Assembly: GCA_938020445.1 (NCBI GenBank)
Contig: CALIIC010000122.1
Span: 1-36,890, forward strand
Direction: 5' to 3'
Source of the DNA: an uncultured Flavobacteriaceae bacterium
GTDB lineage: Bacteria; Bacteroidota; Bacteroidia; Flavobacteriales; Flavobacteriaceae
Length of the DNA stretch: 36,890 nucleotides
Shown here: positions 2,219-30,755 of the stretch, in pieces
How the letters are laid out: every line of letters starts with the position of its first letter
Position numbering within the stretch: position 1 is the stretch's first letter
The notes under the pieces: model-generated
What the model was told of the DNA's origin: nothing
What the model saw: only the letters and a program-made list of their open reading frames with translations
Databases searched by the model: none
Program-made: the position numbers and the translations under genes

Positions 2219-2221
2219 ATT

Positions 2222-3534: not shown

Positions 3535-4562
3535 AAACCACTCACTTTTGCATCGGTAAAACTAGCCATGTCTTCGAGGAAAGCTACAGCACATTTAACA
3601 ATGGGAAATGCCAAGGCCGATCCAGTGCCTTCCCCTAAGCGCAAACCCAAATCTAAAAGAGGTTCTTTTTCTAGGAACTGCAACATTTTGTGATGTCCTT
3701 TTTCTCCCGAAGTATGCGAAAAAATACAATAGTCCAAGACATTTTTTTCCAGCGCATGTGCCACTAAGAGGGCAGAAGTAACTATAAATCCGTCTATGAT
3801 AAGTGGCATGTTTAATTCCGCTGCTTTTAAAATGGCACCGGTCAACATTGCAATCTCAAACCCCCCGAACGTAGCGAGGGTTTCCAATGCTCCCGATGGT
3901 TGGTGCTTTTGAAGAACTTTTTCAAGAATGGTTACTTTTCGAGTGATTCCATTCTTTGCCAAACCAGTTCCTGCGCCAACACATTCCTTCACATTTAACT
4001 CGGTAAAATGGGCCATCAGTAAAGCTGCTGAAGATGTATTGCCGATGCCCATTTCTCCAAAACCTAGTATGTTGCAGCCATCGGCATGTACCTGACTTAC
4101 AATTTTTGCACCTTCTTTAAGCGCTTTTTTGCACTGTTCCATACGCATTGCAGGTTCGAAGGCGTAGTTTTTTGTTCCAAAACCAATTTTAGCATTAACA
4201 AGGCCCGGTACGTTTTTAAAAGAATGGTTTACTCCCGCATCCACAATATGCAATTCCAGACCATTTTGTTCGCAAAACGAATTTATTGCAGCGCCCCCTT
4301 TCAAGAAATTATAAACCATTTGAGCCGTTACCTCTTGAGGATACGGATTTACCGCTCCTTCCTTTGCAATTCCATGATCTGCGGCAAAAACAAGTATGGT
4401 CGGTTTCTTTAGTGAAGGGGAGGCGGTATTTTGAATCAACCCTATTTGTAAAGCAATTGCCTCTAAACGGCCTAGCGAACCCAAAGGTTTTGTTTTGCCA
4501 TTTATCTTATCCTCAAGACTTGATTTAAAACGGGTTGAAATAGGGGTGATGTTGAAATTCAT
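3531..4562 (-). CDS. cobT: Nicotinate-nucleotide--dimethylbenzimidazole phosphoribosyltransferase
   Basis: Activates the lower-ligand base by transferring ribose phosphate from nicotinate mononucleotide, giving alpha-ribazole-5'-phosphate in the cytosol. The 343-residue protein carries GSLGRLEAIALQIGLIQ near the N-terminus, AADHGIAKEGAVNPYPQEVT, FGEMGIGNTSSAALL and the C-terminal RLGEGTGSAL; Glu311 of that last motif corresponds to the catalytic glutamate of the family. It starts 7 nt after the cobU stop and overlaps cobS by 4 nt. Presence of cobT and cobS without early corrin-ring genes nearby points to salvage of cobinamide or remodelling of imported corrinoids. Confidence 0.96.
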   Translation of the reverse strand: MNFNITPISTRFKSSLEDKINGKTKPLGSLGRLEAIALQIGLIQNTASPSLKKPTILVFAADHGIAKEGAVNPYPQEVTAQMVYNFLKGGAAINSFCEQNGLELHIVDAGVNHSFKNVPGLVNAKIGFGTKNYAFEPAMRMEQCKKALKEGAKIVSQVHADGCNILGFGEMGIGNTSSAALLMAHFTELNVKECVGAGTGLAKNGITRKVTILEKVLQKHQPSGALETLATFGGFEIAMLTGAILKAAELNMPLIIDGFIVTSALLVAHALEKNVLDYCIFSHTSGEKGHHKMLQFLEKEPLLDLGLRLGEGTGSALAFPIVKCAVAFLEDMASFTDAKVSGL

Positions 4563-4569
4563 TCTTACT

Positions 4570-5076
4570 TTATTCTTTGATTACTACCGGTATTCCAGAG
4601 ACCATTAAAATTGCTTTATCGGAGTGTTCGGCAATATACTGATTCATCCAACCTTGCAATTCCGTGAATTTCCTACCAACCTCTGTGGCGGCATGAACAC
4701 CCATTCCTATTTCATTGGATATGATGATGATAGTAGCATCTATTTGAAGTAATTTATTGAATTCAATTTTAGCAAACCGGAGTGCTTTTTCGACATCATT
4801 TTTGGTATCGACAAAAAAGTTGGTAAGCCACAATGTAACGCAGTCTATAACAACGGTCTCTTTTGGGTTTATGACATCGAATAGTACTTTTTCCGCCTCT
4901 ACGGAGATCCAATGTTTATCTCTTTCTGAAATATGACGATCAATTCGTGCGCGGTGATCAGCGTCCCAAATACGGGATGTAGCTACATATTTAGGTTGAT
5001 TGCTAAGTTGCTTTGCTAGGTTCTGGGCATACCTACTTTTTCCTGAACGTTCTCCTCCTGTAACGTAGTAAATCAT
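4570..5076 (-). CDS. cobU: Adenosylcobinamide kinase / adenosylcobinamide-phosphate guanylyltransferase
   Basis: Bifunctional enzyme that phosphorylates adenosylcobinamide and then transfers GMP to it. The sequence shows the P-loop GGERSGKS at residues 7-14, then VIDCVTLWLTNFF, the ISNEIGMGVH motif and a C-terminal GIPVVIK. I place the start at 5076, which gives MIYYVTGGERSGKS and 168 residues, the normal CobU beginning. In-frame ATGs at 5112 and 5163 would add 12 or 29 residues without family character. The 5163 codon overlaps the plus-strand promoter box of btuB. This is the first gene of the minus-strand cob/btu operon. I could not find a clear promoter for it. Confidence 0.93.
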   Translation of the reverse strand: MIYYVTGGERSGKSRYAQNLAKQLSNQPKYVATSRIWDADHRARIDRHISERDKHWISVEAEKVLFDVINPKETVVIDCVTLWLTNFFVDTKNDVEKALRFAKIEFNKLLQIDATIIIISNEIGMGVHAATEVGRKFTELQGWMNQYIAEHSDKAILMVSGIPVVIKE

Positions 5077-5158
5077 TTCAATACTTTTTTTTGAGACTTC
5101 AATATTAGACATTTTTTTAGGAGCAAAACAAGGGGAATCATATTGAATAAAAAAGAAG

Positions 5159-5166
5159 TACATTTG
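5159..5166 (+). promoter_or_regulatory. Promoter -7 box of the btuB riboswitch transcript
   Basis: TACATTTG matches the Bacteroidota -7 consensus TAnnTTTG exactly. With the usual 5-7 nt to the start site, transcription would begin near 5171-5173, where the 5' strand of riboswitch helix P1 starts. No good TTTG -33 box is seen at the expected distance; ATTG at 5142-5145 is too close. Confidence 0.6.
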
Positions 5167-5170
5167 TGCT

Positions 5171-5376
5171 GAATTTTGGTTCCCATCAAATTTTTATGAT
5201 GGGATTAAAAGGGAATTCGGTGAAAATCCGAAGCTGTTCCCGCAACTGTAAGCTTAGTTTGCCAAAGGGCAAATGTTTGTTGCTAACTACGAAACCACTG
5301 TCTTTTTACAATTAGGATGGGAAGGTAAGTAACAAAACGCAAGTCAGGAGACCTGCCTTATTCGGAACTAAAATCG
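5171..5376 (+). promoter_or_regulatory. Cobalamin riboswitch controlling btuB
   Basis: All main conserved blocks of the cobalamin aptamer are present in order: AAAAGGGAATTCGGTGAAAA (about 5207-5226), the TTCCCGCAACTGTAAGC core (5237-5253), CCACTG (5295-5300), GGATGGGAAGG (5315-5325) and the B12 box AAGTCAGGAGACCTGCC (5341-5357). Helix P1 can be drawn as an 11-bp pairing of 5173-5183 with 5364-5374 (one G-U). It lies on the plus strand, 32 nt before btuB, and so should lower expression of the uptake genes when adenosylcobalamin is plentiful. The reverse strand shows no second aptamer for the cobU operon. Confidence 0.95.
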
Positions 5377-5378
5377 AT

Positions 5379-5399
5379 AGACTTTCGGGTAAAAGGTCT
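5379..5399 (+). promoter_or_regulatory. Hairpin between riboswitch and btuB start (candidate expression platform)
   Basis: AGACTTT (5379-5385) pairs with AAGGTCT (5393-5399) with one G-U pair and a 7-nt loop, ending 8 nt before the btuB ATG. The 3' arm can instead pair with GGAGACCT of the B12 box (5347-5354 with 5394-5401, 8 bp). The two structures exclude each other. No U-run follows, so control of translation is more likely than termination. Confidence 0.45.
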
Positions 5400-5407
5400 T
5401 CCATGAT

Positions 5408-7246
5408 ATGAAGCTAATTATTTCCATTTGGGTGGTGCTTTTTTGTGCACCCTTTCTTCAAGCACAAGACGATCGTGTATTCGTTCTTGATGAGGTAATA
5501 TTGACCGATGTTAAATTACGGCAGTTCTCGGACGGGGTGAAAACGACAGTCCTGAATGATTCCGTTGCGCTTCGAAACCAAGGTACTTTTACAGACAACC
5601 TTCGCAATAACTCTCTGCTGTATTTTAAGGAGTATGGGTATGGAATGACTTCTACTGTTTCTTTTCGCGGTACTGGGGCTTCTCAAACAGCTGTGGTCTG
5701 GAATGGGATCAATATTAATTCGCCTATGAGCGGTCAAACCGATTTCAACACCCTGCTCTCACAAGGAAGCAATGAAGTGACCATTCGCAGTGGTGGGGGC
5801 AGTACCCAATATGGTACGGGCGCTATTGGTGGTAGTGTGCATCTGAACACTATTCTTGGGTTTAACAAACACAAAAACCATCAATTAAGTACGGGTTATG
5901 GAGCGTTTAACACTCGATCAATGTTCTATAATGGTTCTTTTGGAACAGGGCAAAGTGCTTTTAAAATTGGAGCAGGGCACTACGCGTCCGAAAACGATTT
6001 TAAATACTTGGGAACTGATTTACGAAATGAGAATGGAGGGTTTGAAAATTCCAGTGTTGATGTGGCGTATGGTCGTTTGTTGGGAAAATCCAACATAGTG
6101 AAGGTATACAATCAGACGTTTTTTGGGAACCGCGATTTTTCCGGCACGTTGACGGCCCCATCAAATGACAATTATCGAGATTTGAACTCTAGATCTCTAG
6201 TGGAGTGGACGAATTTCGGATCAAAAAAGGTACAACGTTTAAAAGCGGCCCATTTATATGAGCGCTATCGCTACTATCCAAATCGGTTGCAAGATGATTT
6301 CAGTTTTGGAAAGGCGAATACCTTTTTGGTCAACTACGATTATAAATACCGCTTTAAGAAATTTGTGTTTAATGGAATTTCCGAACTACAAAGAATCGAT
6401 GCCGATGGATCCTCAATTCTTCCAGAAAACCGTACCCTTTTTTCCGGTATTCTTTTGGTAACGCATGCCCCGACGGACAAGCTTAGTTATGGCTTAAACC
6501 TGCGGAAGGACTGGATCAGCAGTTATGAGAGTCCGTTTGTATTTTCTGTGAACAGTCGTTATGCAATCAGTGATCGCTACGAAGTAAGTGTACTTGCGTC
6601 AAAAAATTTTAGAGCCCCCACCTTCAATGATTTATACTGGGAAGGTGCTGGCGCAACTGGCAATAGTAGCTTGGTTCCCGAAACGGCCTTACAAGGGGAG
6701 CTTGGACAGCGTTTCAAATTTAAACACGGTCATATCAAACTAAACGGCTACTATATTGCTACGAAAGACCTTATTCAATGGCGTCCGGATCTGTCGGGAG
6801 TTTGGTCTCCGGTAAATGTGAAGGATACGGAACAGTACGGACTCGAAATTGAAAGTGGATGGAAGAAGGAGCTGGGGGCACATCAAATGTCTTTAGATGC
6901 CGCATATGCGTTTACAAAATCGATTGATGCAAGTACAGACAAACAATTGCTTTATGTGCCCCTGCATACGGCTCGTGGTACCATAACTTACGCATTTGGG
7001 AAGTGGTTGGCATACCTACAGACAATCTATAATGGATATGTGTATACCACAACGGACAACCAACAAGATCTCCCAGGGTATCTCGTGGGGAATTGGGGTT
7101 TGGAATATCAGCTACCAAGCGTTTGGGGAGTTGCGGCCACAATGGCTTTGAAACTTAATAATATAGGAAATACACGATATCAAAATGTTGCGTTCAGGCC
7201 CATGCCGAACAGACACCTTTATTTTCAACTTAATTTTAAATTTTAG
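5408..7246 (+). CDS. btuB: TonB-dependent outer-membrane cobalamin receptor
   Basis: Outer-membrane beta-barrel predicted to import cobalamin using TonB energy. The 612-residue protein has a signal peptide (about 1-19, ending QAQ), a TonB-box-like DEVILTD just after it, a plug domain (about 35-145, with FRGTGASQTAVVWNGININSP and GGGSTQYGTGAIGGS), and a barrel whose last strand ends in phenylalanine (FQLNFKF). It lacks the N-terminal carboxypeptidase-like domain of SusC receptors, as is usual for BtuB. B12 specificity follows from the riboswitch directly upstream and from the BtuG-like gene 3 nt downstream. A two-codon ATG-ATA-TGA frame at 5403-5411 overlaps its start codon. Confidence 0.93.
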   Translation: MKLIISIWVVLFCAPFLQAQDDRVFVLDEVILTDVKLRQFSDGVKTTVLNDSVALRNQGTFTDNLRNNSLLYFKEYGYGMTSTVSFRGTGASQTAVVWNGININSPMSGQTDFNTLLSQGSNEVTIRSGGGSTQYGTGAIGGSVHLNTILGFNKHKNHQLSTGYGAFNTRSMFYNGSFGTGQSAFKIGAGHYASENDFKYLGTDLRNENGGFENSSVDVAYGRLLGKSNIVKVYNQTFFGNRDFSGTLTAPSNDNYRDLNSRSLVEWTNFGSKKVQRLKAAHLYERYRYYPNRLQDDFSFGKANTFLVNYDYKYRFKKFVFNGISELQRIDADGSSILPENRTLFSGILLVTHAPTDKLSYGLNLRKDWISSYESPFVFSVNSRYAISDRYEVSVLASKNFRAPTFNDLYWEGAGATGNSSLVPETALQGELGQRFKFKHGHIKLNGYYIATKDLIQWRPDLSGVWSPVNVKDTEQYGLEIESGWKKELGAHQMSLDAAYAFTKSIDASTDKQLLYVPLHTARGTITYAFGKWLAYLQTIYNGYVYTTTDNQQDLPGYLVGNWGLEYQLPSVWGVAATMALKLNNIGNTRYQNVAFRPMPNRHLYFQLNFKF

Positions 7247-7249
7247 TAA

Positions 7250-8311
7250 ATGAACATTAGAAATGTAGTAATGGCCTTGGCCGGGGGATTTTTATTCATC
7301 GCTTGTGAAAATGATGACAATGGCAGTGGAAGTTTGCCTTTGGGAGATTATGAAAATGGGATATTGATTACACACGAGGGGCCTTTTAACAATGGGACCG
7401 GAACGGTTTCATTTATCTCGGATGACTTAACGATCACCGACAATGCGATTTATAATAAGGTAAACAATGCCGATTTGGGTAACATTGTACAGTCGATGGC
7501 CTTTGTGGGACAAAACGCATATATCATTGCCAATGTTTCCAACAAAATAACAGTGGTGAATCGCTATACTTTTGAAGAAGTGGCAAGTATTGATACAGGA
7601 TTGAACAATCCTAGGTATTTTGTAGCAGTAAATGGCAGGGGCTATGTAACCAATTGGGGGGATTCGGGCGATGAGACCGATGATTTTATAGCTTTGATAA
7701 ATTTGGAAACCAACAGCGTTGAAGGGACGATTCCGGTTGACTTTGGACCAGAAGACATTCTTGCCCAAGGCAGTACGGTATATGTAGCGCACCAGGGTGC
7801 TTTTGGGTACAACAACAAAATTTCTGTGATTGATACGGATACTGATACCGTTTCAGATACGATAGACGTGGGCTTGGTTCCCAATTCAATGCAGTTTGAT
7901 GCAGCAGGGAATCTTTGGGTGCTTTGCGGTGGAAAACCGGCATTTAGCGGAGAAGAAACTGCAGGGGCTTTACAGAAAATAGACCTACAGACGAATGCTG
8001 TTAGCAGTACGTTTGATTTTAATGTTACGGAGCATCCCAATCATCTTAGTCTGGATAACGGTACCTTGTACTACAGCCTTAGTGGCGATGTGTTCGGTTT
8101 GTCAGTTACAGCAAATAGCCTTCCTAGAGAAAGTGATTTTTCAGGTTTGAGTATTTATGGCATGACGACCAAAAATGGCGATCTGTATACGACAGATGCA
8201 AAAAACTTTGCGAGTAACGGGAGTTTGACCGTGCATTCGTTGGATTCAAAAACCGAAATCAAATCTTTTGAAGTAGGCTTGATTCCTGCCGGTATTTATT
8301 TTAATGAATAA
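7250..8311 (+). CDS. BtuG-like surface beta-propeller lipoprotein (DUF5074/YncE-like)
   Basis: Predicted surface lipoprotein that captures corrinoids and hands them to BtuB. The signal peptide ends at Cys19 (FIAC) and is followed by ENDDNG, an acidic stretch of the type that marks Bacteroidota lipoproteins for the cell surface. The rest is built of repeated blade-like units (for example NKITVVNRYTFEEVASIDTG, NKISVIDTDTDTVSDTIDVG, GALQKIDLQTNAVSSTF), as in YncE-type seven-bladed propellers. In Bacteroides, BtuG is a beta-propeller lipoprotein encoded beside BtuB that binds B12 very tightly. Position, fold pattern and anchor all agree here, but cobalamin-binding residues cannot be checked by eye. 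It is co-transcribed with btuB, 3 nt apart. Confidence 0.8.
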   Translation: MNIRNVVMALAGGFLFIACENDDNGSGSLPLGDYENGILITHEGPFNNGTGTVSFISDDLTITDNAIYNKVNNADLGNIVQSMAFVGQNAYIIANVSNKITVVNRYTFEEVASIDTGLNNPRYFVAVNGRGYVTNWGDSGDETDDFIALINLETNSVEGTIPVDFGPEDILAQGSTVYVAHQGAFGYNNKISVIDTDTDTVSDTIDVGLVPNSMQFDAAGNLWVLCGGKPAFSGEETAGALQKIDLQTNAVSSTFDFNVTEHPNHLSLDNGTLYYSLSGDVFGLSVTANSLPRESDFSGLSIYGMTTKNGDLYTTDAKNFASNGSLTVHSLDSKTEIKSFEVGLIPAGIYFNE

Positions 8312-8399
8312 GTGATTTATAGAAGGGTAGTGGTGAGTAAGTTAATGTCCTTTTGTATTGAATCGGGGTGTGTTACAAATAACCTAAAAGTGAAATAGT

Positions 8400-9341
8400 A
8401 TGATAAAAGTGTGTTCTTTCCTTCCAGCGGTCACCCAAATGTTATATGATATGGGATTGCAGGAACACTTGCATGGGGTGACGTTTGAATGTCCGGCTAT
8501 AGCACTTTTAGAAAAAAAAGTGGTAGTACGCTGTGTTTTAGAAGGGAAAGATTACACCAGTCAAGAAATTGACACGCTTTTTTCAGAAAGCAAGCGTTCA
8601 GGGAAAAGTTTATACTATGTAGAGGAAGAGGTTTTAGAAGAAATAGCGCCCGATATTATTTTTACCCAAGATGTATGCGATGTTTGCCAAATAGATACCG
8701 AATGCACTGCCGCTGCGGTAGCACATTTGGAAAAACAACCACTATTGATTTCCATAACACCAAATTCGTTGAACGATGTATTTGAAAATGCGTTGACTAT
8801 TGCGACTGCCTTGGGTAGAGCGGATGTGGGCCACAGGTATATAACTTCCCTGAACCAACGTATCGGCCATGTGGTTGATACCATACACTTGGGGAAGGCA
8901 CCAATAAAACGAATATCGTTGTTGGAGTGGATCAACCCCATTTTTAATTGTGGACATTGGATTCCGGATCAAATAAGGTATGCAGGAGGAGAAGACACGT
9001 TATCGAACCCGGATGGAGATAGTGTGGTCATCAAATGGGAGAAAATTGTCGATTATAATCCGGAGGTGTTAGTGATTGCCCCTTGCGGTTTTACGATTGA
9101 CAGAACAATGGAAGAACTACACCTGCTTACTGAAAAGCCAGACTGGAACAAGCTTGCAGCTGTGCGTTCTAACGAGGTTTATGTAGTGGATTTTGATTTA
9201 TTTACACAGTCGTCGGCCAGTACACTTGTGTCGGGAATTGAAGTACTGGCAGCCTTATTACACCCTGCGAACATAGAATTGCCCGAACAGCTGTCGCAAA
9301 AAGTGAAACGATTGCCAATGAGCGAAGCCCTATTAAAATAA
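8400..9341 (+). CDS. BtuF-like cobalamin-binding protein without signal peptide
   Basis: A 313-residue protein of the class III periplasmic-binding fold (TroA/BtuF type): it opens with IKVCSFLPAVTQMLYDMGL, has EEIAPDIIFTQDVCDVCQID (Cys93, Cys96, then Cys102), and SLLEWINPIFNCGHWIPDQI followed by RYAGGEDTL. No signal peptide or lipobox is present: the first beta strand starts at residue 2, so the product should be cytosolic. Similar leaderless BtuF relatives occur in other bacteria and are often called cobalamin-binding protein, but their role is unclear. It lies 88 nt after the BtuG-like gene, before the shared terminator, so it probably belongs to the riboswitch-controlled unit. A corrinoid chaperone or sensor is one possible role. 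Confidence 0.78.
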   Translation: MIKVCSFLPAVTQMLYDMGLQEHLHGVTFECPAIALLEKKVVVRCVLEGKDYTSQEIDTLFSESKRSGKSLYYVEEEVLEEIAPDIIFTQDVCDVCQIDTECTAAAVAHLEKQPLLISITPNSLNDVFENALTIATALGRADVGHRYITSLNQRIGHVVDTIHLGKAPIKRISLLEWINPIFNCGHWIPDQIRYAGGEDTLSNPDGDSVVIKWEKIVDYNPEVLVIAPCGFTIDRTMEELHLLTEKPDWNKLAAVRSNEVYVVDFDLFTQSSASTLVSGIEVLAALLHPANIELPEQLSQKVKRLPMSEALLK

Positions 9342-9378
9342 AAAGCCCCCAACGGTTATGAACTATTGGGGCTTTTTT
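9341..9378. terminator. Bidirectional rho-independent terminator
   Basis: AAAAGCCCC (9341-9349) pairs with GGGGCTTTT (9368-9376) and is followed by a T-run on the plus strand. On the minus strand the run of As before the stem gives a second T-run. It separates the convergent B12 unit from the S41 protease gene. Confidence 0.85.
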
Positions 9379-9465
9379 ATTCTTTTTTTCTACTTCAATT
9401 GAAGGTCGATAGGTTTGTCCAAGAACATTTTGTCTTTGTTAAATTAAGCCTATTGCCGGATACTA

Positions 9466-10953
9466 TCAATTTTGATTTTCTTTTTGTAGTGGAACACCTT
9501 TCAGGTACATATTATCCTTCATGGGCTGAAACATATCGCTATTAGTAAGTTCTGCGCTAATAGGCATCTTAGATACGAAAGATTTCTTAGAAGTAACTCC
9601 AGTAATTTCTTGTATAGTTCTTGCAAGAAGTGGTTCATTCAAATCACCTAAAACTCCCAAATCATCAAGTTCTTCTTCTAAGAGAACATCAGGAACTAGA
9701 CCGTTTGTGTACTCAAAGAACCCATCAGAATTTGCACTTCTCCCGATTAAGAGTTGTATGGCCCAACGATTATCAGAGTTGATTTGATTTTCCCTGGAGG
9801 GTGCGTACAAATATGAATTGCCCGGATCATCAACGAAAGTTGTCGAAAATTCATTTTTACCTCTTGTGGTATCGCCTACGTGTATAACATCCATGTACGG
9901 GGCCAGACCGTTAATAACTAATTCACTTGCAGAGGCCGAACTATTAATGGCAATAATATATACTTTGGACAAGTTCAAAGTATTAATACCAGCACCATTG
10001 ATTACATCTTGAAAATACCTAGTGCCATCAGGGTTGTCCTCACCGTATATTAACTGCCTTACTTTGTCATTTACAATCGAAGTTGTGAAAACATTATCGG
10101 TATCAGTATCGTAAATCATACTGGAAATTCTCTGAGTAGTTAAAACACTTCCTCCCGGATTGTATCTAAAATCTAATACCAAATCTGTTATTCCTTCTGC
10201 TTTGAATCTTCCAAATACCTCATTGAGTTGGGTGTCAAACTCGTCAACGAAACCATTGTATACTAAATAACCGATTTTCTGACCATTGAGTTCAAATACC
10301 TTTTCTAAAAAAATTGGATTTTTCTGAACACCTTCCTGTTTGGTAAGGGTTACGGACTTATCAGAGGGAGCAACTGAATTATTTTCAATCGTTGCCATAT
10401 TTAGCGTGTACGTGTTATTTTCGCCAAATAATAAATCTCGGTAATTGTCCCTATTCAATGTTTGGCCATCAACACCGGTAAATAAATCTCCCCGTTTAAT
10501 ATCCTTATTCGAGGCATCTGTGTTTGGATTTATGTATTTAACATAACCAAAAATGTCATTCCCTTCACTAAAAGCGACCAAACCAAACTCTACTCCATTT
10601 GTTCTAGCGATACCACTTTGACTTTCGGTAAGTTGTTTGAAATCATCTGAAAAATAGGTAAACCTATCATCTCTAAAGCGAATTTTGTTGTCGAAAAATT
10701 TACCAGGATCACTTTCTGTTTCCAAAAATGCAGTGTATTCTTCCGTAGTACTAAATCTATCATCTGCTAAATCTGGAACATCCTCAAACCAAAAATACCA
10801 TATATTAGAGGCTTTCCACATAAGGTTTTGGGCGGCAACATCCGCAGAGCCGTCGGGGTCTACACCACCTGGTTCAATAACACCATCATCATCATTTGAG
10901 CAACTGGCCAATACAAACCCTAGGGCCAAAAACAACATTAAATACTTTTTCAT
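9466..10953 (-). CDS. S41 family peptidase, lipoprotein (C-terminal processing protease-like)
   Basis: Exported serine protease of the Ctp/Tsp type. The 495-residue protein has a lipobox ending at Cys18 (FVLASC) followed by SNDDDG, an acidic stretch suggesting surface exposure. A PDZ-like region lies at about 110-205 (GVEFGLVAF ... IKRGDLFTGVDGQ). The peptidase core has DFRYNPGGSV (261-270) and the catalytic SASASE, with Ser341 and Lys366 exactly 25 residues apart as in E. coli Tsp (Ser430/Lys455). I chose the ATG at 10953 because the longer frame to 11025 puts 24 non-signal residues ahead of the signal peptide. It stands alone, convergent with the B12 unit. The substrate is unknown. Confidence 0.9.
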   Translation of the reverse strand: MKKYLMLFLALGFVLASCSNDDDGVIEPGGVDPDGSADVAAQNLMWKASNIWYFWFEDVPDLADDRFSTTEEYTAFLETESDPGKFFDNKIRFRDDRFTYFSDDFKQLTESQSGIARTNGVEFGLVAFSEGNDIFGYVKYINPNTDASNKDIKRGDLFTGVDGQTLNRDNYRDLLFGENNTYTLNMATIENNSVAPSDKSVTLTKQEGVQKNPIFLEKVFELNGQKIGYLVYNGFVDEFDTQLNEVFGRFKAEGITDLVLDFRYNPGGSVLTTQRISSMIYDTDTDNVFTTSIVNDKVRQLIYGEDNPDGTRYFQDVINGAGINTLNLSKVYIIAINSSASASELVINGLAPYMDVIHVGDTTRGKNEFSTTFVDDPGNSYLYAPSRENQINSDNRWAIQLLIGRSANSDGFFEYTNGLVPDVLLEEELDDLGVLGDLNEPLLARTIQEITGVTSKKSFVSKMPISAELTNSDMFQPMKDNMYLKGVPLQKENQN

Positions 10954-11081
10954 AGGTTCAATTTTAATTTTCAAGTCTTTTTTATCGATGTGCAACGTCG
11001 CAATTAAATACGCAGCACCGATCAAAAAAGATTATTTCAATTCTAAAGAATAACAACCCAAAAATCAAAAACCCTACCACT

Positions 11082-11114
11082 TTTGAAATTGCGGTACCAG
11101 CTTTGTTAATTTTG
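11082..11114 (+). promoter_or_regulatory. Housekeeping-type promoter upstream of the ECF sigma gene
   Basis: TTTG (11082-11085), a 21-nt spacer and TAATTTTG (11107-11114) fit the Bacteroidota primary-sigma consensus. It lies in the 306-nt gap between the divergent S41 protease and sigma genes and would give a leader of about 140 nt. Nothing else coding is seen in that gap. Confidence 0.5.
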
Positions 11115-11185
11115 CCTTCAGAGCCGTTATTCATTTAGTTAGCGAATGCCTAAAATACTTACATTAAAAGGAATAAAAAATATTT

Positions 11186-11211
11186 TGTAACAAAATTCGA
11201 TATATGTCGTC
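11186..11211 (+). promoter_or_regulatory. ECF-type promoter upstream of the sigma gene (probable autoregulation)
   Basis: TGTAAC (11186-11191), a 16-nt spacer and CGTC (11208-11211) match the general ECF layout of an AAC-containing -35 element and a CGTC -10 element. The sigma gene starts 48 nt after the -10 element. No other such pair was noticed in the window's intergenic regions. Confidence 0.55.
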
Positions 11212-11259
11212 TTCCTTATGTAAACCGCTTAAAACGGCTTTCAAAACAACCCAACCAGA

Positions 11260-11769
11260 ATGCAACAGTCAGAATTTTTAAATGTGGTAATGCCCTTTAA
11301 GGACAAGCTGTTTCGATTGGCAAAACGCTTGCTGGTCTCAACAGAGGAAGCTGAAGATGCTACCCAAGAGATATTACTGAAATTATGGTCAAAAAACAAA
11401 GTGATGGAATCGTATAACAATGTAGAAGCATTTGCAATGACGATGACGAAAAACTTTTGTTTGGATCGCTTGAAATCGAAGCAAGCAAATAACCTAAAGT
11501 TGGTACACAGCAATTATGCGGAAGAAAATTCTGGATTGCAGACACAATTGGAAGCAAAGGACAGTGTTGATTGGGTACAAAAAATTATGGAAGACCTGCC
11601 GGAACAACAAAAAATGGTACTGCAATTGCGAGACGTAGAACAATATGATTATGATGAGATTGCAGAAATGCTCGATATGCAACCAACGGCGGTTCGAGTG
11701 GCCTTGTCAAGGGCAAGAAAATTAGTAAGAGAAAAATTAGTGCAAAAACACAGCTATGGAATCGGATAA
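11260..11769 (+). CDS. RNA polymerase sigma-70 factor, ECF subfamily
   Basis: Alternative sigma factor of 169 residues. Region 2 (about 10-75) has the EDATQEILLKLW motif for core binding and promoter melting. Region 4 (about 114-161) has LPEQQKMVLQLRDVEQYDYDEIAEML, then a recognition helix and VRVALSRARKLVREKL. There is no extra C-terminal domain. Its 3' end overlaps the next gene by 14 nt, the common arrangement of a sigma with its regulator. An ECF-type promoter at 11186-11211 suggests it drives its own operon, including the DUF4252 envelope proteins. The inducing signal is unknown. Confidence 0.93.
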   Translation: MQQSEFLNVVMPFKDKLFRLAKRLLVSTEEAEDATQEILLKLWSKNKVMESYNNVEAFAMTMTKNFCLDRLKSKQANNLKLVHSNYAEENSGLQTQLEAKDSVDWVQKIMEDLPEQQKMVLQLRDVEQYDYDEIAEMLDMQPTAVRVALSRARKLVREKLVQKHSYGIG

Positions 11770-26042: not shown

Positions 26043-26495
26043 ATGAAATTAAAAGTACCTCCTGTAATTATTCTTATTGTTTTTGGTGGGTTAATGTACT
26101 TACTTTCTAAATTTTTACCGGTGGGTGATTTTGACTTCTTTGGCAAGTATTACCTTATTTGGTTTTTAATTGTGATGGCTTTTGGTATCGGTACTGTTGC
26201 GTTGTTTCATTTTGTTCGTGCAAATACTACGGTTGATCCTACTACGCCGTCAAAAGCTGCGAATTTAGTTCATGACGGACTCTATCGTTTTTCAAGAAAC
26301 CCGATGTATTTGGCTATGTTATTGTTATTATTGGCTTGGGGTCTTTGGTTGGGAAATGCCTTCAACACTTTGTTGGCTGCAGGTTTTGTGGGATATATGA
26401 ACAGCTTTCAGATCAAGCCCGAGGAGGAAGCCCTTAGTATACTGTTTGGGAAGGAGTATCAACGATATTGTGGAAATGTACGTAGGTGGTTTTAG
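26043..26495 (+). CDS. Isoprenylcysteine carboxyl methyltransferase-like membrane protein
   Basis: 150-residue integral membrane methyltransferase-like protein with about four hydrophobic segments. The family signature is present: DGLYRFSRNPMYLAMLLLLL (about 79-98) and a C-terminal EEEALSILFGKEYQRYCGNV followed by RRW. In ICMT/PEMT proteins these parts bind SAM. Bacterial members of this size occur widely and their substrates, probably lipids or small molecules, are not known. It precedes the SatD trio, but a palindrome with a T-run in between could end its transcript. Confidence 0.85.
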   Translation: MKLKVPPVIILIVFGGLMYLLSKFLPVGDFDFFGKYYLIWFLIVMAFGIGTVALFHFVRANTTVDPTTPSKAANLVHDGLYRFSRNPMYLAMLLLLLAWGLWLGNAFNTLLAAGFVGYMNSFQIKPEEEALSILFGKEYQRYCGNVRRWF

Positions 26496-26510
26496 ATAAT
26501 TAGCTAAAAC

Positions 26511-26604
26511 GCTTATATGGCCATTTTATAAGCTTTTTAGATTATATTAATTAAATATTAGCATAAAAGCTTATAATTACATATATTAGCACTTTAGCTT
26601 ATAA
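26511..26604 (+). promoter_or_regulatory. Array of GCTTATA half-sites upstream of satD (candidate operator)
   Basis: Four copies of GCTTATA lie in the 110-nt gap: forward at 26511-26517, inverted at 26527-26533 (making a GCTTATA-N9-TATAAGC palindrome), forward at 26569-26575 and forward at 26597-26603, ending 2 nt before the satD ATG. The last two share GCTTATAA and are 28 nt apart. The palindrome with its trailing TTTTT could also be a weak terminator of the gene before. SatD has a helix-turn-helix, so autoregulation is possible. Confidence 0.5.
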
Positions 26605-26605
26605 A

Positions 26606-27217
26606 ATGATAGCAATTATAACAGGTGATATTATTAATTCAGAGAATCATAAGGCATCGGAATGGCTCGGTATTCTTAAGAGCTATTTTTCTAAACTCGG
26701 TGACGCCCCCGAAGATTGGGAGATTTATCGTGGAGATGAATTTCAATTGCGAGTGCCTTTTGCAGCGGCATTTGAGGTAGCCATACACATAAAAGCGTTA
26801 ATGAAAACAATAAAGGGTTTAGATGTACGCATGGGCATTGGTCTTGGTCAAGAAACTTTTATCGGGGTAGGTGTGAGTGAATCAAACGGTCCCGCTTACC
26901 AACGTTCGGGTCGAACTTTTGAGGCTCTTAAAGGTGATAAAACGAACCTTACCGTAGCAACAGGGAATGGTTTCTACGATGGAACCTTAAATTTGATGCT
27001 GCGTTTGGCCCTCGATTTTATGAACGATTGGAGTGTTGTTTCTGCTGAAATTGTTGTCATAGCATTGGAAAATCCAAAAGCCTCCCAACAAGAAATAGCG
27101 ACCAAACTTGGTATTCGGCAATCCGCTGTTAGCCAACGACAAAAAAGAGCACGTTTAGATTTGGTATACGAATTATTAAACTATTACAAAATGAGTGTTA
27201 AAGAGATTACTGCATGA
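26606..27217 (+). CDS. SatD family protein (palm-like domain plus helix-turn-helix)
   Basis: 203 residues. SatD was named from the acid-tolerance locus of Streptococcus mutans, and its biochemical role is not settled. The N-terminal part (1-125) shows, in order: TGDIINS with Asp8, YRGDEFQLRV with Asp44, VRMGIGLG (74-81) and GPAYQRSGR (95-103). This order and spacing resemble class III nucleotidyl cyclases (FADI, GDxxxxxF, RxGIHxG, GxxxNxAAR) and GGDEF proteins. The substrate lysine and the transition-state asparagine of cyclases are not kept (Gln99 stands for Asn; Arg103 remains). The C-terminal part (157-190) is a helix-turn-helix (QQEIATKLGIRQSAVSQRQK). Its stop overlaps the next start by 4 nt. 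Confidence 0.82.
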   Translation: MIAIITGDIINSENHKASEWLGILKSYFSKLGDAPEDWEIYRGDEFQLRVPFAAAFEVAIHIKALMKTIKGLDVRMGIGLGQETFIGVGVSESNGPAYQRSGRTFEALKGDKTNLTVATGNGFYDGTLNLMLRLALDFMNDWSVVSAEIVVIALENPKASQQEIATKLGIRQSAVSQRQKRARLDLVYELLNYYKMSVKEITA

Positions 27218-27912
27218 TATTTTTCTTAAAATTATTTTTAGCGCATCTTATCGGTGATTTTCTACTACAGCCCACTACCTGGGTGGTTGATAAAGACTCA
27301 AAAAAAATAAAGTCAAAATACCTATACTTACATGTTTTGGTGCATTTTGGTATTACGATGGTGCTTCTATGGGATATTTCTTATTGGGGTATTGCACTAC
27401 TAATCGCTATAGCCCATTATTTGATAGATTTAGTCAAATTATATGCAACGCCTCTTTTTAAACACGCGAACATTCCCTTTTTTATCGATCAGTTATTGCA
27501 TGTTTTGGTTCTATATGCTTTTGCATTTTATGGAACGTTTTGGGAGCAAACACTTTTACTCGCCGAACGCATCGACCTAGGTTTACTTGTGGCTGTGGTT
27601 TTTGTAAGTTTTCCCGCGGGAATTATCATGGGGAAACTGCTAGAGCCAATGGCGGGTCAAATAGAATTAGATCATGAATCTTTGCCCAACGCAGGGAAAT
27701 ACATCGGGATTATTGAACGAATTTTTGTGCTCATTTTTATTGTGCTGGGGAAATGGGAGGCCATCGGACTTTTAATAACGGCAAAGTCTGTATTTAGATT
27801 CAATGATTTAAAAGAAAGTAACAATCGAAAACTAACAGAATACATCCTTATAGGAACTCTTTTAAGTTTTGGTATGGCCATCGTAACTGGTTTAATCTAT
27901 GAAAATTTTTAA
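27214..27912 (+). CDS. DUF3307 integral membrane protein
   Basis: 232 residues with about six to seven membrane helices. The opening FLAHLIGDFLLQPTTWVVDK is the mark of DUF3307. Several His and Asp residues fall in or at the ends of helices: His11/Asp15 (HLIGD), His40 and His44 (LHVLVH), His68/Asp72 (HYLID), Asp92/His96 (IDQLLH). Such HxxxD spacing may form a metal site in the membrane, but no activity is known for the family. It is translationally coupled to satD (ATGA overlap) and overlaps the hydrolase gene by 14 nt. The satD-DUF3307 pairing seems to recur in other genomes, from general knowledge and not checked here. Confidence 0.85.
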   Translation: MIFFLKLFLAHLIGDFLLQPTTWVVDKDSKKIKSKYLYLHVLVHFGITMVLLWDISYWGIALLIAIAHYLIDLVKLYATPLFKHANIPFFIDQLLHVLVLYAFAFYGTFWEQTLLLAERIDLGLLVAVVFVSFPAGIIMGKLLEPMAGQIELDHESLPNAGKYIGIIERIFVLIFIVLGKWEAIGLLITAKSVFRFNDLKESNNRKLTEYILIGTLLSFGMAIVTGLIYENF

Positions 27913-28693
27913 GACACATCTATTTCCGTTTTTCGCTTTTTTATTGTTCGTCAATTTTGGCAACGGTCAAGAAGCGTCTTTTAATTCATTCGATGGTACC
28001 AAGATCGTATACACAGATGAGGGCCATGGGAAACCGGTACTTTTACTACATGGTTTTATAAACACCCGCAAAAACTGGGACAAAACCGAGCTAAAGAAAG
28101 ACCTGATTGCTGAGGGGTACCGCGTTATAGCCCCAGATCTAAGAGGGAACGGGGATTCGGAAAAACCGCAGGAAGATGATGCATATGCCAATGATGCTGA
28201 AGTAACCGATTTAATGTTGTTAATGAATCATTTAGAACTTAAAAAGTATAAAGCGGTCGGGTATTCCAGAGGCAGTATCGTCCTTGCAAAGCTCGTAACG
28301 ATCGACAAGCGAATCAAGAAAGCGGTTTTGGGAGGAATGGGGATTGATTTTTCAAATCCAAATTGCGAGCGTCGTCTCATGTTTGCCGAGGCGTTTGCTG
28401 GGAATACGAACGAAATTACCGAAGGGGCCGTGACCTATGCCAAATCGATAAATGCAGATTTAAGGTCGTTGCACTTGCAACAAAAGTATCAGCCCGTTAC
28501 TACAAAAGAAGCGCTTAAAACAATTAAAAAACGTGTTTTGGTAATAGCAGGTGAGAAGGACCTTGACAATGGTAGCCCTGCTGAACTTCAAAAAGCAATA
28601 CCAAGGGCACGTCTGCAATTGGTACCTGGGGATCACAACGGAACCTATAAAACGGCTGCTTTTTCGAAGGCCATTATTTCATTTTTGAGGTAA
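27899..28693 (+). CDS. Exported alpha/beta hydrolase
   Basis: 264-residue hydrolase with an N-terminal signal peptide (about 1-23, FLLFVNFGNGQ), so it acts in the periplasm. The fold shows the oxyanion segment LLLHGFINTRKNW, APDLRGNGDSEKP, the nucleophile elbow GYSRGS with Ser123, and candidate acid and base residues in GEKDLDNG and GDHNGTY. Substrate is unknown; the family includes esterases, haloperoxidase-like and lipase-like enzymes. It overlaps the DUF3307 gene by 14 nt and is probably the last gene of the satD operon. No clear terminator follows in the 169-nt gap. Confidence 0.88.
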   Translation: MKIFKTHLFPFFAFLLFVNFGNGQEASFNSFDGTKIVYTDEGHGKPVLLLHGFINTRKNWDKTELKKDLIAEGYRVIAPDLRGNGDSEKPQEDDAYANDAEVTDLMLLMNHLELKKYKAVGYSRGSIVLAKLVTIDKRIKKAVLGGMGIDFSNPNCERRLMFAEAFAGNTNEITEGAVTYAKSINADLRSLHLQQKYQPVTTKEALKTIKKRVLVIAGEKDLDNGSPAELQKAIPRARLQLVPGDHNGTYKTAAFSKAIISFLR

Positions 28694-28862: not shown

Positions 28863-30755
28863 ATGATTGCAGTGGGGCGAAAGTATGTTTTTGATTTTGA
28901 CAGTACGCTTACCAGAGTAGAGGCGTTAGATGTTTTGGCTGAATTAACCCTTCAAGGGAAAACGAACAAGCAGGAAATAGTCGATGAGATTCAACGCATT
29001 ACCAACTTGGGTATCGATGGCGATATTTCGTTTACCGAATCGTTGGAAAAAAGGATAAAGTTATTGAACGCCAATAAGTCCGATTTGGCAGGCCTTGTGA
29101 GTGAGTTGAGGCAAAAAATATCCAAGTCAATTGAGTCTAACAAAGAGTTTTTTGAAAAATATTCAGATGATATTTATGTGATTTCATGTGGCTTTAAGGA
29201 ATTTATAGACCCTATTGTAAAAGAGTATAATATTCCTTCTGATCGTGTGTATGCGAATACATTCGAGTTTGATGAGGACGGAGCAATTGTAGGTTTTGAT
29301 GCGGAAAATCCTTTGGCTTTGCACAATGGAAAGATCGAATGCCTTAAAAGACTCGATTTGGAAGGCGAGGTACAGGTTATAGGCGACGGTTATAGTGATT
29401 ATGTGATGCGTGAAGCCGGTATTGCCGATAAATTCTTTGCCTATACCGAGAATGTGCATCGAGAAAAGGCCGCAGTGAACGCAGACCACGTGACACCGAA
29501 CCTTGATGAGTTTTTGTTTGTAAATGACCTGCCCCGAAATATTTCGTATCCCAAAAACCGAATCAAAATACTTTTATTGGAAAATGTACACCCAGATGCC
29601 TTTGAGAACCTTTCAGACGATGGTTTTTCGGTAGAATTGGTGAAGCACAGCCTTCCAGAGGAAGAATTGATAGAGAAAATAAAAGGAGTGCATGTATTGG
29701 GAATCCGTTCTAAGACACAGGTGACTCAAAAGGTGCTCGACGCGGCCAATAAACTATTGGTGGTAGGTGCGTTTTGTATTGGTACTACACAAATAGATTT
29801 GGAGTACTGCCGAAGAAAAGGGGTAGTGGTGTTCAATGCTCCCTATAGCAATACACGTTCGGTGGTAGAATTGGCCATCGGAGAGATCATTATGCTAATG
29901 CGCAGTATTTTTCCCAGAAGTACCGAAATTCATGATGGCCAGTGGCAAAAAACGGCCGCTGGATCAAGGGAAGTACGTGGTAAGAATCTTGGTATAGTTG
30001 GGTATGGTAATATAGGTAAGCAACTTTCGGTACTGGCGGAGGCCATTGGAATGCGTGTATATTATTATGATATAAATGACCAGCTTGCTTTGGGGAATGC
30101 CATTAAGTGCAATACCTTGGAGGATTTGTTGAATGTTTCCGATGTGGTTACGCTTCATATAGATGATAACAAGGCCAATAAAAATTTCATTGGGGAGCGA
30201 GAGATCAACCAGATGAAGAATGGCGCCATGCTCGTGAACCTCTCTAGAGGTTTTGTAATCGATATAGAGGCCTTGGCCACTGCTTTGAAAAGCGGAAAAT
30301 TAGGAGGTGCCGCGGTTGATGTATATCCAAAAGAACCAAGGGCCAATGGCGAGTTTTATACAGAACTTAAAGGGCTGTCAAACGTAATTCTAACACCTCA
30401 TATTGGGGGTAGCACTGAAGAAGCGCAACGTAATATTGCCGACTTTGTTCCCAGTAAGATTATGGGGTATATTAATTCCGGTGATACGGTGGATGCTGTG
30501 AATTTCCCGAATATACGGTTGCCGAAACAGTCAAATGCACATCGTTTTCTTCACATTCATAAAAATGTTCCTGGGGTCATGGCCAAAATCAATGAGGTAT
30601 TGGCGAAATACGAGATGAACATCACAGGGCAATACCTTTCAACCGATAGTGAGGTAGGGTACGTGATCAGTGATATGGACAAGGAATACAACAAAGATGT
30701 GGTGAAAGCACTTAAAAAAGTAGAACATACCATTAAATTCAGAGTGCTTTACTAG
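28863..30755 (+). CDS. serA: Fused phosphoserine phosphatase - D-3-phosphoglycerate dehydrogenase
   Basis: 630-residue fusion of two steps of serine synthesis. Residues 1-225 are a HAD phosphatase of the SerB type: DFDSTLTRVE (Asp11, Asp13), Ser108 in ISCGF, Lys157 and GDGYSD (Asp175). From about 232 on is an E. coli-type SerA: NAD-binding GIVGYGNIGKQ (377-387), Arg462 in SRG, Glu491 in PKEP, His513 in TPHIGGST, and an ACT domain (about 558-630) for serine feedback. The aminotransferase of the pathway (SerC) is not next to it. The single ATG at 28863 and intact reading frame across the junction show a true fusion. All key residues are present in both halves. Confidence 0.93.
   Translation: MIAVGRKYVFDFDSTLTRVEALDVLAELTLQGKTNKQEIVDEIQRITNLGIDGDISFTESLEKRIKLLNANKSDLAGLVSELRQKISKSIESNKEFFEKYSDDIYVISCGFKEFIDPIVKEYNIPSDRVYANTFEFDEDGAIVGFDAENPLALHNGKIECLKRLDLEGEVQVIGDGYSDYVMREAGIADKFFAYTENVHREKAAVNADHVTPNLDEFLFVNDLPRNISYPKNRIKILLLENVHPDAFENLSDDGFSVELVKHSLPEEELIEKIKGVHVLGIRSKTQVTQKVLDAANKLLVVGAFCIGTTQIDLEYCRRKGVVVFNAPYSNTRSVVELAIGEIIMLMRSIFPRSTEIHDGQWQKTAAGSREVRGKNLGIVGYGNIGKQLSVLAEAIGMRVYYYDINDQLALGNAIKCNTLEDLLNVSDVVTLHIDDNKANKNFIGEREINQMKNGAMLVNLSRGFVIDIEALATALKSGKLGGAAVDVYPKEPRANGEFYTELKGLSNVILTPHIGGSTEEAQRNIADFVPSKIMGYINSGDTVDAVNFPNIRLPKQSNAHRFLHIHKNVPGVMAKINEVLAKYEMNITGQYLSTDSEVGYVISDMDKEYNKDVVKALKKVEHTIKFRVLY

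What the first reader, a model, noticed from the sequence alone, without database searches (positions are those of the whole stretch)
26511..28693. SatD / DUF3307 / periplasmic hydrolase: a coupled, uncharacterised three-gene module
The three genes overlap by 4 and 14 nt. SatD joins a palm-like domain to a helix-turn-helix, DUF3307 is a membrane protein with many His/Asp residues, and the hydrolase is exported. A DNA-binding regulator, a membrane enzyme-like protein and a periplasmic enzyme in one coupled unit look like a signalling or envelope-response system that no known pathway names. Seen: overlaps, domains, signal peptide. Inferred: that they work together.
Basis: partly seen in the sequence, partly recalled or inferred. 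Interest (0 to 1): 0.72.

Follow-up and report, generated by a model that had tools for sequence, protein, structure and literature searches.

The report
Palm-domain regulator and membrane-protein pair
Two side-by-side genes, a DNA-binding regulator shaped like a signal-nucleotide enzyme and a membrane protein, look like a compact switch found in many bacteria and some archaea, usually with the same unusual row of DNA sites in front; the third gene is a local add-on.

Summary
The three genes and their 4- and 14-nt overlaps are real. The pair satD–DUF3307 is a conserved unit: SatD lies directly upstream of DUF3307 in 80 of 80 fetched family loci, 80 of 80 named loci and 73 of 77 DUF3307 genes phylum-wide; it also occurs on proteobacterial and haloarchaeal plasmids and in proviral contigs. 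The hydrolase is a clade-limited passenger (15 of 38 close named loci, 0 of 42 others).

New here: the gap before satD is filled by tandem dyads repeating every 28–29 bp. The same architecture with other half-sites stands before satD (or before the membrane gene) in nearly all loci tested, archaea included. Half-sites covary with SatD recognition-helix residue 177, the strongest residue after matching for relatedness, so SatD very probably binds this array. SatD folds as a cyclase/GGDEF/Cas10-type palm; both metal-type aspartates are kept in 190 of 192 sequences. Its constant partner is an unnamed C-terminal membrane domain that carries DUF3307, another N-terminal part, or nothing.

Best reading: SatD is a nucleotide-responsive local repressor restraining a membrane effector. 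DNA binding is well supported by sequence; repression, ligand, toxicity and defence are inference.

The parts
26498..26517 (.). SatD-box dyad 1 AATTAGC-N6-GCTTATA
   Evidence: pattern search, 1 mismatch; array fits
26527..26546 (.). SatD-box dyad 2 TATAAGC-N6-GATTATA, 29 bp after dyad 1
   Evidence: pattern search, 1 mismatch
26556..26575 (.). SatD-box dyad 3 TATTAGC-N6-GCTTATA, 29 bp after dyad 2
   Evidence: exact pattern match
26584..26603 (.). SatD-box dyad 4 TATTAGC-N6-GCTTATA, 28 bp after dyad 3, ending 2 bp before the satD start codon
   Evidence: exact pattern match
26606..27217 (+). satD: palm domain plus C-terminal HTH; predicted regulator of its own operon
   Evidence: PF16264, fold, operator covariation
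26606..26965 (+). palm domain (about residues 1-120); metal-type D8 and D44 (RGDEF, residues 42-46)
27119..27148 (+). HTH recognition helix, residues 172-181; Q177 (27134-27136) is the predicted specificity residue
27214..27912 (+). membrane partner: DUF3307 domain (residues 4-105) plus conserved C-terminal membrane domain
   Evidence: PF11750, alignments, model
27676..27909 (+). C-terminal constant membrane domain (about residues 155-232: AG..IG..ER, AKS..RF, EY.LIGT..S), the part shared with SatD partners that lack DUF3307
   Evidence: no Pfam model reached its cut-off over it in the proteins
27899..28693 (+). alpha/beta hydrolase with a signal peptide by eye: clade-limited passenger, not part of the conserved pair

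Best explanation
A self-contained two-gene switch. SatD is a palm-domain (class III cyclase/GGDEF/Cas10-like) protein with a C-terminal HTH. Several SatD dimers sit side by side on the array of dyads spaced 28-29 bp apart, which fills the promoter region, and hold down the operon. The output is the membrane protein, whose constant C-terminal domain is the working or coupling part and whose N-terminal part (DUF3307 here) is variable. A nucleotide bound or made at the palm's two-Asp site changes the dimer or the row of dimers and so releases, or directly gates, the membrane protein, which then acts on the membrane, most likely in a growth-restraining way. Supported by computation here: conserved pairing, array, covariation of helix and half-site, clusters of sites only at satD in the genomes searched, palm fold, conserved aspartates, constant C-domain. 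Inferred: repression rather than activation, dimers, nucleotide ligand, cooperative row, effect of the membrane protein. The hydrolase is incidental.
For: Pairing: 80 of 80 fetched family loci, 80 of 80 named loci (the best 80 of 588), 73 of 77 DUF3307 genes in a 296-genome phylum sample; flanking genes differ between clades. Array: shift-28 self-identity 0.515 against mean 0.343, sd 0.033, in 81 upstream regions, no such peak in two control regions; 155 of 161 arrays beat the best of 10 shuffles; 29 of 34 plasmid, viral, archaeal or other-partner loci at p<=0.05, and 28 or 29 bp wins in 28 of those 29 though 26-31 was allowed. HTH reading: residue 177 tops mutual information with half-site positions 6, 4, 5 and the relatedness-matched scan (0.473; next 0.309; median -0.02). 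In one search, Q177 goes with TAT[TA]AG in 82 of 93, E with TATC[GT] in 16 of 17, K with CC in 15 of 17. In 27 loci outside that set, 17 of 22 with K177 have CC in the half-site against 1 of 5 others (hand tally). Local: 4 of 6 places in the own genome are at satD; in 8 relatives clusters of two or more sites lie only at satD, in 7 of 8. Membrane gene as target: array between satD and DUF3307 in L206 (scored) and L227 (by eye). TAnnTTTG in 79 of 161 upstreams against 22 in shuffles. Palm; D8 and D44 in 190 of 192. Natural loss: L209 SatD lacks both Asp, a membrane partner and an array. Restraint: satD essential in tested strains yet present in only 178 of 249 S. pyogenes genomes (PMC11323703, passages read).
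Against: No experiment. Foldseek E-values for the palm are not below 1e-3 (best 1.4e-3; TM about 0.4) although probability is 1.00 for the top rows. The cyclase Arg position is not kept (R in 101 of 192, E in 59), so the domain may only bind nucleotide. The membrane protein has no PDB fold match (best E 0.73). Covariation is partly inherited: palm residues also score (S101 0.309; E83 0.51) and the compared pairs are not independent. Eight of 81 array fits are less than 10 above the mean of three shuffles; five of 34 fail (L209, L210, L215, L227, L228), and L228 shows no array by eye in either place. Raw counts of the site pattern per genome are not above the backward-read control (own 6+4 against 7+2; similar in most); only clustering at satD is special. 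Stray single sites occur in 7 of 8 relatives, one exact (G026). The TATCAC pattern was at satD in 2 of 6 genomes, elsewhere in 2, absent in 2. TAnnTTTG is inside the array in 76 of 101 cases, about what the array's share of the region predicts. Single-copy, stable chromosomal inheritance in Flavobacteriaceae fits a housekeeping role as well. I could not check what lies beside streptococcal satD (one search failed).
Confidence: 0.6

Rival explanations
1. Ordinary local regulator plus transporter or membrane enzyme: SatD senses a nucleotide or stress metabolite and sets the level of a membrane protein that moves or modifies something, as MarR/TetR-type regulators do for neighbouring pumps.
For: One copy per genome in 92 of 149 family genomes and the same flanks within each clade; conserved polar residues H11, D15, H40, H68, D72, D92, H96 suggest an active or metal site in the DUF3307 half; S. 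mutans sat genes tied to acid tolerance (PMC11323703 and PMC12077213, passages read).
Against: The DUF3307 half is dispensable: other SatD partners have a different N-terminal half or little more than the C-domain, 69-155 aa, small for a transporter; the pair makes up much of 3.8-kb plasmids and sits on viral contigs, one with a terminase gene.
Confidence: 0.3
2. Defence or abortive-infection module: the membrane protein damages the membrane when SatD senses a phage-driven nucleotide change, in logic a transcription-level relative of Panoptes or Pycsar.
For: Sphingomonas plasmid: pair between Pycsar genes (PycC, E2, 2TM effector) and a ThsB-type TIR gene plus GajB; Enterobacter plasmid: GajA and GajB close by; P. 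fragi and Agrobacterium plasmids with toxin-antitoxin type genes nearby by annotation; viral contigs; lower-ranked palm matches include Cas10 proteins, PycC (rank 31) and OptS (rank 45).
Against: One to three neighbours scanned on each of five other plasmid loci (L113, L116, L117, L204, L207) gave no clear defence system; the remaining plasmid loci were not scanned. PADLOC has no confident model for the pair: SatD HTH parts hit CasR/CARF/mad1 models at E 9.5e-5 and weaker. In Flavobacteriaceae it is a stable chromosomal pair. 50,697 phage records gave no tblastn match.
Confidence: 0.3
3. Three-gene envelope signalling system including the periplasmic hydrolase.
For: 14-nt overlap and co-orientation here; hydrolase next in 4 of 14 same-flank family loci and 15 of 38 close named loci.
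Against: 0 of 42 more distant named loci and 0 of 66 other family loci have it.
Confidence: 0.05
4. The dyad arrays are RNA or transcription hairpins, or chance AT-rich repeats, rather than SatD operators.
For: Short inverted repeats in AT-rich DNA; simple dyad counts exceed shuffles only modestly.
Against: Fixed 28-29 bp period also in haloarchaeal and Sphingomonas plasmids; half-sites track the recognition helix; control regions show no peak.
Confidence: 0.04

Closest known systems
Panoptes (OptS-OptE)
   Same: Two-gene unit of a small palm-domain protein and a membrane protein; the palm protein restrains a harmful partner (PMC12657218, passages read). OptS 9pd0 is Foldseek rank 45 for SatD, probability 0.77.
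   Different: OptE has two TM segments and a beta-barrel nucleotide sensor; the SatD partner is modelled all-helical without such a domain. SatD has an HTH and an operator array; the passages read on OptS mention neither.
Pycsar (PycC-PycTM)
   Same: Cyclase-like protein with a neighbouring membrane effector; PycC-type 7r65 is a lower-ranked Foldseek match (rank 31); one SatD pair sits beside a Pycsar operon.
   Different: No PADLOC PycC or PycTM model hits SatD or its partner; cyclase Arg not kept; HTH and array.
Type II toxin-antitoxin operons
   Same: Overlapping genes, regulator first, predicted dedicated operator at its own promoter; satD essential in tested S. pyogenes strains although accessory.
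   Different: Partner is a 232-aa membrane protein, regulator has a palm domain, toxicity untested.
PucR/CdaR-type regulators (GGDEF-like plus HTH; description recalled)
   Same: GGDEF-like fold joined to a C-terminal HTH; BAD_0249 3onq is Foldseek rank 26, probability 0.54.
   Different: SatD keeps both metal-type aspartates, is 203 aa, nearly always has a membrane partner, and has the 28-29 bp array.
sat operon of Streptococcus mutans (ylxM, ffh, satCDE)
   Same: Source of the SatD name; the SatCDE, Ffh, YlxM cluster is stated in PMC12077213 (passage read). SatD's HTH is closest by profile to the UPF0122-type chain 1s7o (E 0.0096).
   Different: Whether streptococcal SatE is a membrane partner of this type was not tested; the original paper is not held.

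Membership tests
SatD family (PF16264) | Pfam gathering score 29 bits | tested here: met
   33.7 bits, residues 2-186
DUF3307 (PF11750) | Pfam gathering score 23 bits | tested here: met
   91.8 bits, residues 4-105; the C-terminal half is outside the match
Nucleotidyl cyclase / GGDEF / Cas10 palm superfamily | palm fold | tested here: met
   pLDDT 96 model; best matches GGDEF domains, class III cyclases, Cmr2 and Csm complexes; probability up to 1.00 but no E below 1e-3
Nucleotidyl cyclase / GGDEF / Cas10 palm superfamily | two metal-binding aspartates | tested here: met
   D8 and D44 in 190 of 192; exceptions a truncated gene (L075) and L209; that they bind metal is inferred from position
Class III adenylyl/guanylyl cyclase | transition-state Arg after beta4 (recalled) | tested here: not met
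   position 103 is R in 101 of 192, E in 59
Panoptes | S-2TM-beta (or CARF/SAVED 2TM) effector gene next to the palm gene | tested here: not met
   partner modelled all-helical; no Pfam or PADLOC hit of that type for the window partner or four plasmid partners (PADLOC)
Pycsar | PycC cyclase model and Pycsar effector | tested here: not met
   no such PADLOC hits for window proteins or four plasmid pairs
Toxin-antitoxin operon | regulator bound at its own promoter | tested here: inconclusive
   sequence evidence strong; no binding experiment
Toxin-antitoxin operon | second gene toxic unless the first is present | not testable with these tools
   only indirect: essential accessory satD in S. pyogenes
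Three-gene SatD-DUF3307-hydrolase system | hydrolase conserved as third gene beyond close relatives | tested here: not met
   0 of 42 distant named loci, 0 of 66 other family loci

The most novel reading that the evidence does not exclude
SatD modules are a separate, undescribed class of prokaryotic guard system shared by bacteria and archaea: a palm enzyme that both reads (or makes) a signalling nucleotide and, as a cooperative row of dimers wound on a 28-29 bp operator array, silences a membrane-killing effector with a constant C-terminal domain and swappable N-terminal parts; a transcription-level counterpart of Panoptes carried on plasmids and proviruses.
Probability: 0.22. Interest if true: 0.88.

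Novelty: new variant of a known kind. Interest (0 to 1): 0.7.

Why it matters
Two families of unknown function (SatD, DUF3307) and one membrane domain without a Pfam match become one testable system. It comes with a readable operator code (residue 177 against half-site) that predicts binding sites in bacteria and haloarchaea, a clear first experiment (gel shift with the array), and a candidate reason why satD is essential in S. pyogenes strains that have it. If the palm binds a signalling nucleotide, it is a new kind of nucleotide-responsive transcription factor. In the searches (open-licence PMC only; 40 of 319 papers listed) I saw no paper that treats SatD with DUF3307, the array or the C-domain.

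Tried and rejected
Hydrolase as a core member: rejected. RmuC, thioesterase, FecCD-like, mscL, globin and serA neighbours as partners: each limited to a part of the loci (names by my reading of the sequences except where Pfam was run), rejected. DUF3307 as a phospholipase C/P1-nuclease type enzyme (idea recalled): no support. DUF2652 cyclase-like proteins of PMC4886424 as the same family: no mention of SatD (outline and passages read). Phage homologues by tblastn: none in 50,697 phage records, while five viral contigs have DUF3307. The BFVD search returned, at the top, phage DUF3307 proteins of 119-131 aa, all with E above 0.1. The first dyad scan was noisy: AT-rich shuffles also give two or three short dyads; it was replaced. 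Three viral scans with single proteins found nothing. The pEC34A pair gave no match in the E. coli genomes.

Choices and slips that bear on counts: 80 of 91 non-own family DUF3307 loci were fetched. The family and named sets overlap in part (L082 and L120 are the same contig by length). SatD rows weaker than 2.1e-7 were left out (mostly matches to the HTH alone). Of the 32 SatD rows without adjacent DUF3307, 18 were fetched. The fit allowed only 28 and 29 bp and gave a bonus for TAT, in real and shuffled sequence alike; one search allowed 27-30, 26-31. Shuffles keep base content only. In one search the start point was set by hand for L113, L201, L204 and L206 after seeing the sequence; with 40 shuffles p cannot go below 0.024. 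The tally was made by hand, allows one base beyond the printed six, includes weak arrays, and nine of its K177 loci have similar helices; three viral loci listed there were part of the set and are left out of the tally. One search used 148 of 161 loci. In one search three of six genomes (G050, G060, G063) were chosen by a mix-up of locus and genome numbers. In one search the row L222 is a wrong ORF picked by my script, so its consensus line is diluted; the likely L222 partner is the 69-aa ORF. One search lists one DUF3307-type protein with a Colicin_V match at E 4.7e-4, not followed up.
Full report
What is in the window. satD (26606-27217), a DUF3307 gene (27214-27912) and an alpha/beta hydrolase gene (27899-28693) lie on the + strand and overlap by 4 and 14 nt. 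Families: PF16264 33.7 bits, PF11750 91.8 bits, Abhydrolase_1 69 bits. Upstream on the same strand is a PEMT/ICMT-like gene (26043-26495), downstream a serA-like gene with a HAD domain (28863-30755). The host is a flavobacterium near Pelagihabitans, Zobellia and Maribacter, judged by the named best DUF3307 matches.

The pair is conserved, the third gene is not. In 149 genomes of the family PF11750 is found in 92, one copy each, and PF16264 in 43; all 43 are among the 92. I fetched 80 of the 91 other DUF3307 loci. A SatD-like ORF lies directly upstream in all 80: 77 by blastp at E 1e-3, one at E 1e-2, two divergent ones by position and motifs. With longest-ORF starts, 46 of 81 pairs overlap by exactly 4 nt. 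In the best 80 named genome loci SatD is directly upstream in 80; the two sets overlap in part. In a 296-genome sample of the phylum, 73 of 77 DUF3307 genes have SatD within 600 bp upstream on the same strand. Flanking genes differ between clades. The hydrolase follows in 4 of 14 family loci that share the window's flanks and 0 of the other 66, and in 15 of 38 close named loci and 0 of 42 others. It is a local passenger.

The pair is mobile elsewhere. tblastn with the window proteins finds DUF3307 on 20 and SatD on 8 of 72,556 plasmid records. Pairs were seen in Segatella copri, Salinivibrio, Vibrio lentus, Sphingomonas insulae, Pseudomonas fragi, Enterobacter kobei, Agrobacterium pAt, the haloarchaea Natronosalvus and Haloplanus, Fusobacterium and seven 3.8-4.4 kb plasmids of E. 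coli and Klebsiella (two read), where little else is annotated besides Rop and, in pEC34A, MobA. Five viral contigs carry DUF3307, three with a full SatD; on L200 the pair lies among other genes between a DUF968 gene and a terminase gene. On the Sphingomonas plasmid the pair stands between Pycsar genes (PycC, E2, 2TM effector) and a ThsB-type TIR gene plus GajB; on the Enterobacter plasmid GajA and GajB are close by. One to three neighbours scanned on each of five other plasmid loci gave no clear defence system.

The operator-like array. The 110-bp gap before satD holds four 20-bp dyads at 26498, 26527, 26556 and 26584, steps 29, 29 and 28 bp, the last ending 2 bp before the start codon. Over 81 upstream regions self-identity at a shift of 28 bp is 0.515 against a mean of 0.343 (sd 0.033) over shifts 10-60, with 56 next; two control regions show no such peak. 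Three-dyad arrays beat the best of 10 shuffles in 155 of 161 distinct loci, 8 of 81 fits are less than 10 above the mean of three shuffles. Half-sites differ by clade: TAT[TA]AGC, TATCAC, TATCTGC, TATCGTT, TATTCC, TATTACC, TATATGC. The architecture recurs outside: Vibrio TTAGCC, Sphingomonas and Enterobacter TCAACC, Natronosalvus ACAACC, Haloplanus GTTCGG, viral TGGCCG. With the period free between 26 and 31, 29 of 34 such loci reach p<=0.05, and 28 of these 29 winners are 28 or 29 bp (four start points set by hand). In L206 (scored) and L227 (by eye) the array stands between satD and the membrane gene, which points to the membrane gene as the regulated target. The Bacteroidota promoter motif TAnnTTTG (recalled) occurs in 79 of 161 flavobacterial-type upstreams against 22 in shuffles; 76 of 101 occurrences are inside the array, about what the array's share of the region predicts.

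SatD reads the array. Over SatD residues 2-203 and 7 half-site positions the strongest mutual information is residue 177 with positions 6, 4 and 5, then residue 173 with position 6 and, close behind, E83 in the palm (0.51), so part of the signal is shared descent. Comparing pairs of loci within bands of palm identity, residue 177 has by far the largest effect on half-site similarity (0.473; next S101 0.309; median -0.02), and it holds for pairs under 30% identical (0.65 against 0.34; pairs are not independent). Q goes with TAT[TA]AG (82 of 93), E with TATC[GT] (16 of 17), K with CC (15 of 17). In 27 loci outside that set, 17 of 22 with K177 have CC in the half-site against 1 of 5 others, and the one E177 locus has TTCG (hand tally). 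Site clusters are confined to satD: own genome 4 of 6 places; 8 relatives, two or more sites at satD in 7 and no cluster elsewhere, but single stray sites in 7 of 8 and raw counts mostly like the backward-read control. With the TATCAC pattern, hits were at satD in 2 of 6 genomes, elsewhere in 2, none in 2. So SatD is very probably a local regulator of its own operon; repression is inferred from the position of the array.

SatD's palm. The model (pLDDT 96, pTM 0.92) matches GGDEF domains, class III cyclases, GTP cyclohydrolase III, Cas10 proteins and, lower, PycC and OptS (probability up to 1.00, best E 1.4e-3). D8 and D44, at the positions of the two metal aspartates, are kept in 190 of 192 sequences; the cyclase Arg position is not kept. 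One locus, L209, has lost D8 and D44, has no membrane gene next to it and no array (p 0.585), as if the features go together.

The partner. PF11750 covers only the first half. Eighteen of 32 SatD loci without adjacent DUF3307 were read: nine are followed by a membrane protein with a different N-terminal half but the same C-terminal domain, six by a short protein (69-137 aa) with little more than that domain, one by an apparently split copy (L218), and two by nothing of the kind (L209, L226). Natronosalvus (155 aa) and Agrobacterium also have a short form. The shared motif is roughly G..IG.LER, A.K...R, Y.LIGT..S (diluted by one wrong row). Three proteins with it gave no Pfam match over a cut-off. 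The window protein's model has pLDDT 89.8, ten helices and no PDB fold match (best E 0.73).

Mechanism. I favour restraint of a strongly acting membrane protein by a nucleotide-responsive local repressor. A step of 28 bp is 2.67 turns of B-DNA, so neighbouring dimers would be turned by about 240 degrees, which suits a protein helix around the DNA (inference). In S. pyogenes satD is essential in the tested strains but present in 178 of 249 genomes (PMC11323703, passages read), as expected of a gene that restrains its neighbour; whether that neighbour is of this type was not tested. Rivals are a regulator-transporter pair and a defence module; the data do not separate them.

Novelty. Full-text searches for the family names found one annotation paper that calls a Fusobacterium SatD an acid-tolerance protein, one phage genome table listing DUF3307, and the S. 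pyogenes essentiality study (passages read); I saw nothing on the pair, the array or the C-domain. Most subscription journals are not held. I class it as a new variant of a known kind (local regulator plus membrane effector), with an undescribed sensor and operator architecture.

Noticed in passing
L111 (NC_019077.1, 3770 bp) and L112 (4424 bp): Tiny E. coli/Klebsiella plasmids (Rop, ColE1-like) that carry a SatD-DUF3307 pair with a 332-aa partner and AACC-type dyads, and few other annotated genes.
   Followed up: partly
L206 (Sphingomonas insulae plasmid) 2192-11693: SatD pair lies between Pycsar genes and TIR/GajB genes, and its array stands just before the membrane gene.
   Followed up: partly
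L209 (G165:C8): A SatD with K and N in place of D8 and D44, no membrane partner and no array, but a Q177 recognition helix: looks like a natural loss of the system.
   Followed up: partly
L223, L224, L225: SatD partners of only 106-111 aa with a variant motif (ER, ALKIGTR, SNDYFLIGN), among the smallest versions of the membrane domain.
   Followed up: partly
L200 4337-5747: SatD-DUF3307 on a viral contig between a DUF968 gene and a terminase gene, with an IrrE-like gene nearby and GGCCG dyads.
   Followed up: partly
L062 (G028), L075 (G051), L218 (G416): Shortened or split members of the pair (187-aa DUF3307 frame; truncated satD; split partner), described only.
   Followed up: no
G026:C1:1104839-1104858: One exact SatD-type dyad far from satD; the only exact stray site of this pattern in the nine genomes.
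   Followed up: no
window 26043-26495: PEMT/ICMT-like gene upstream, seen next to satD in the window's clade only.
   Followed up: partly
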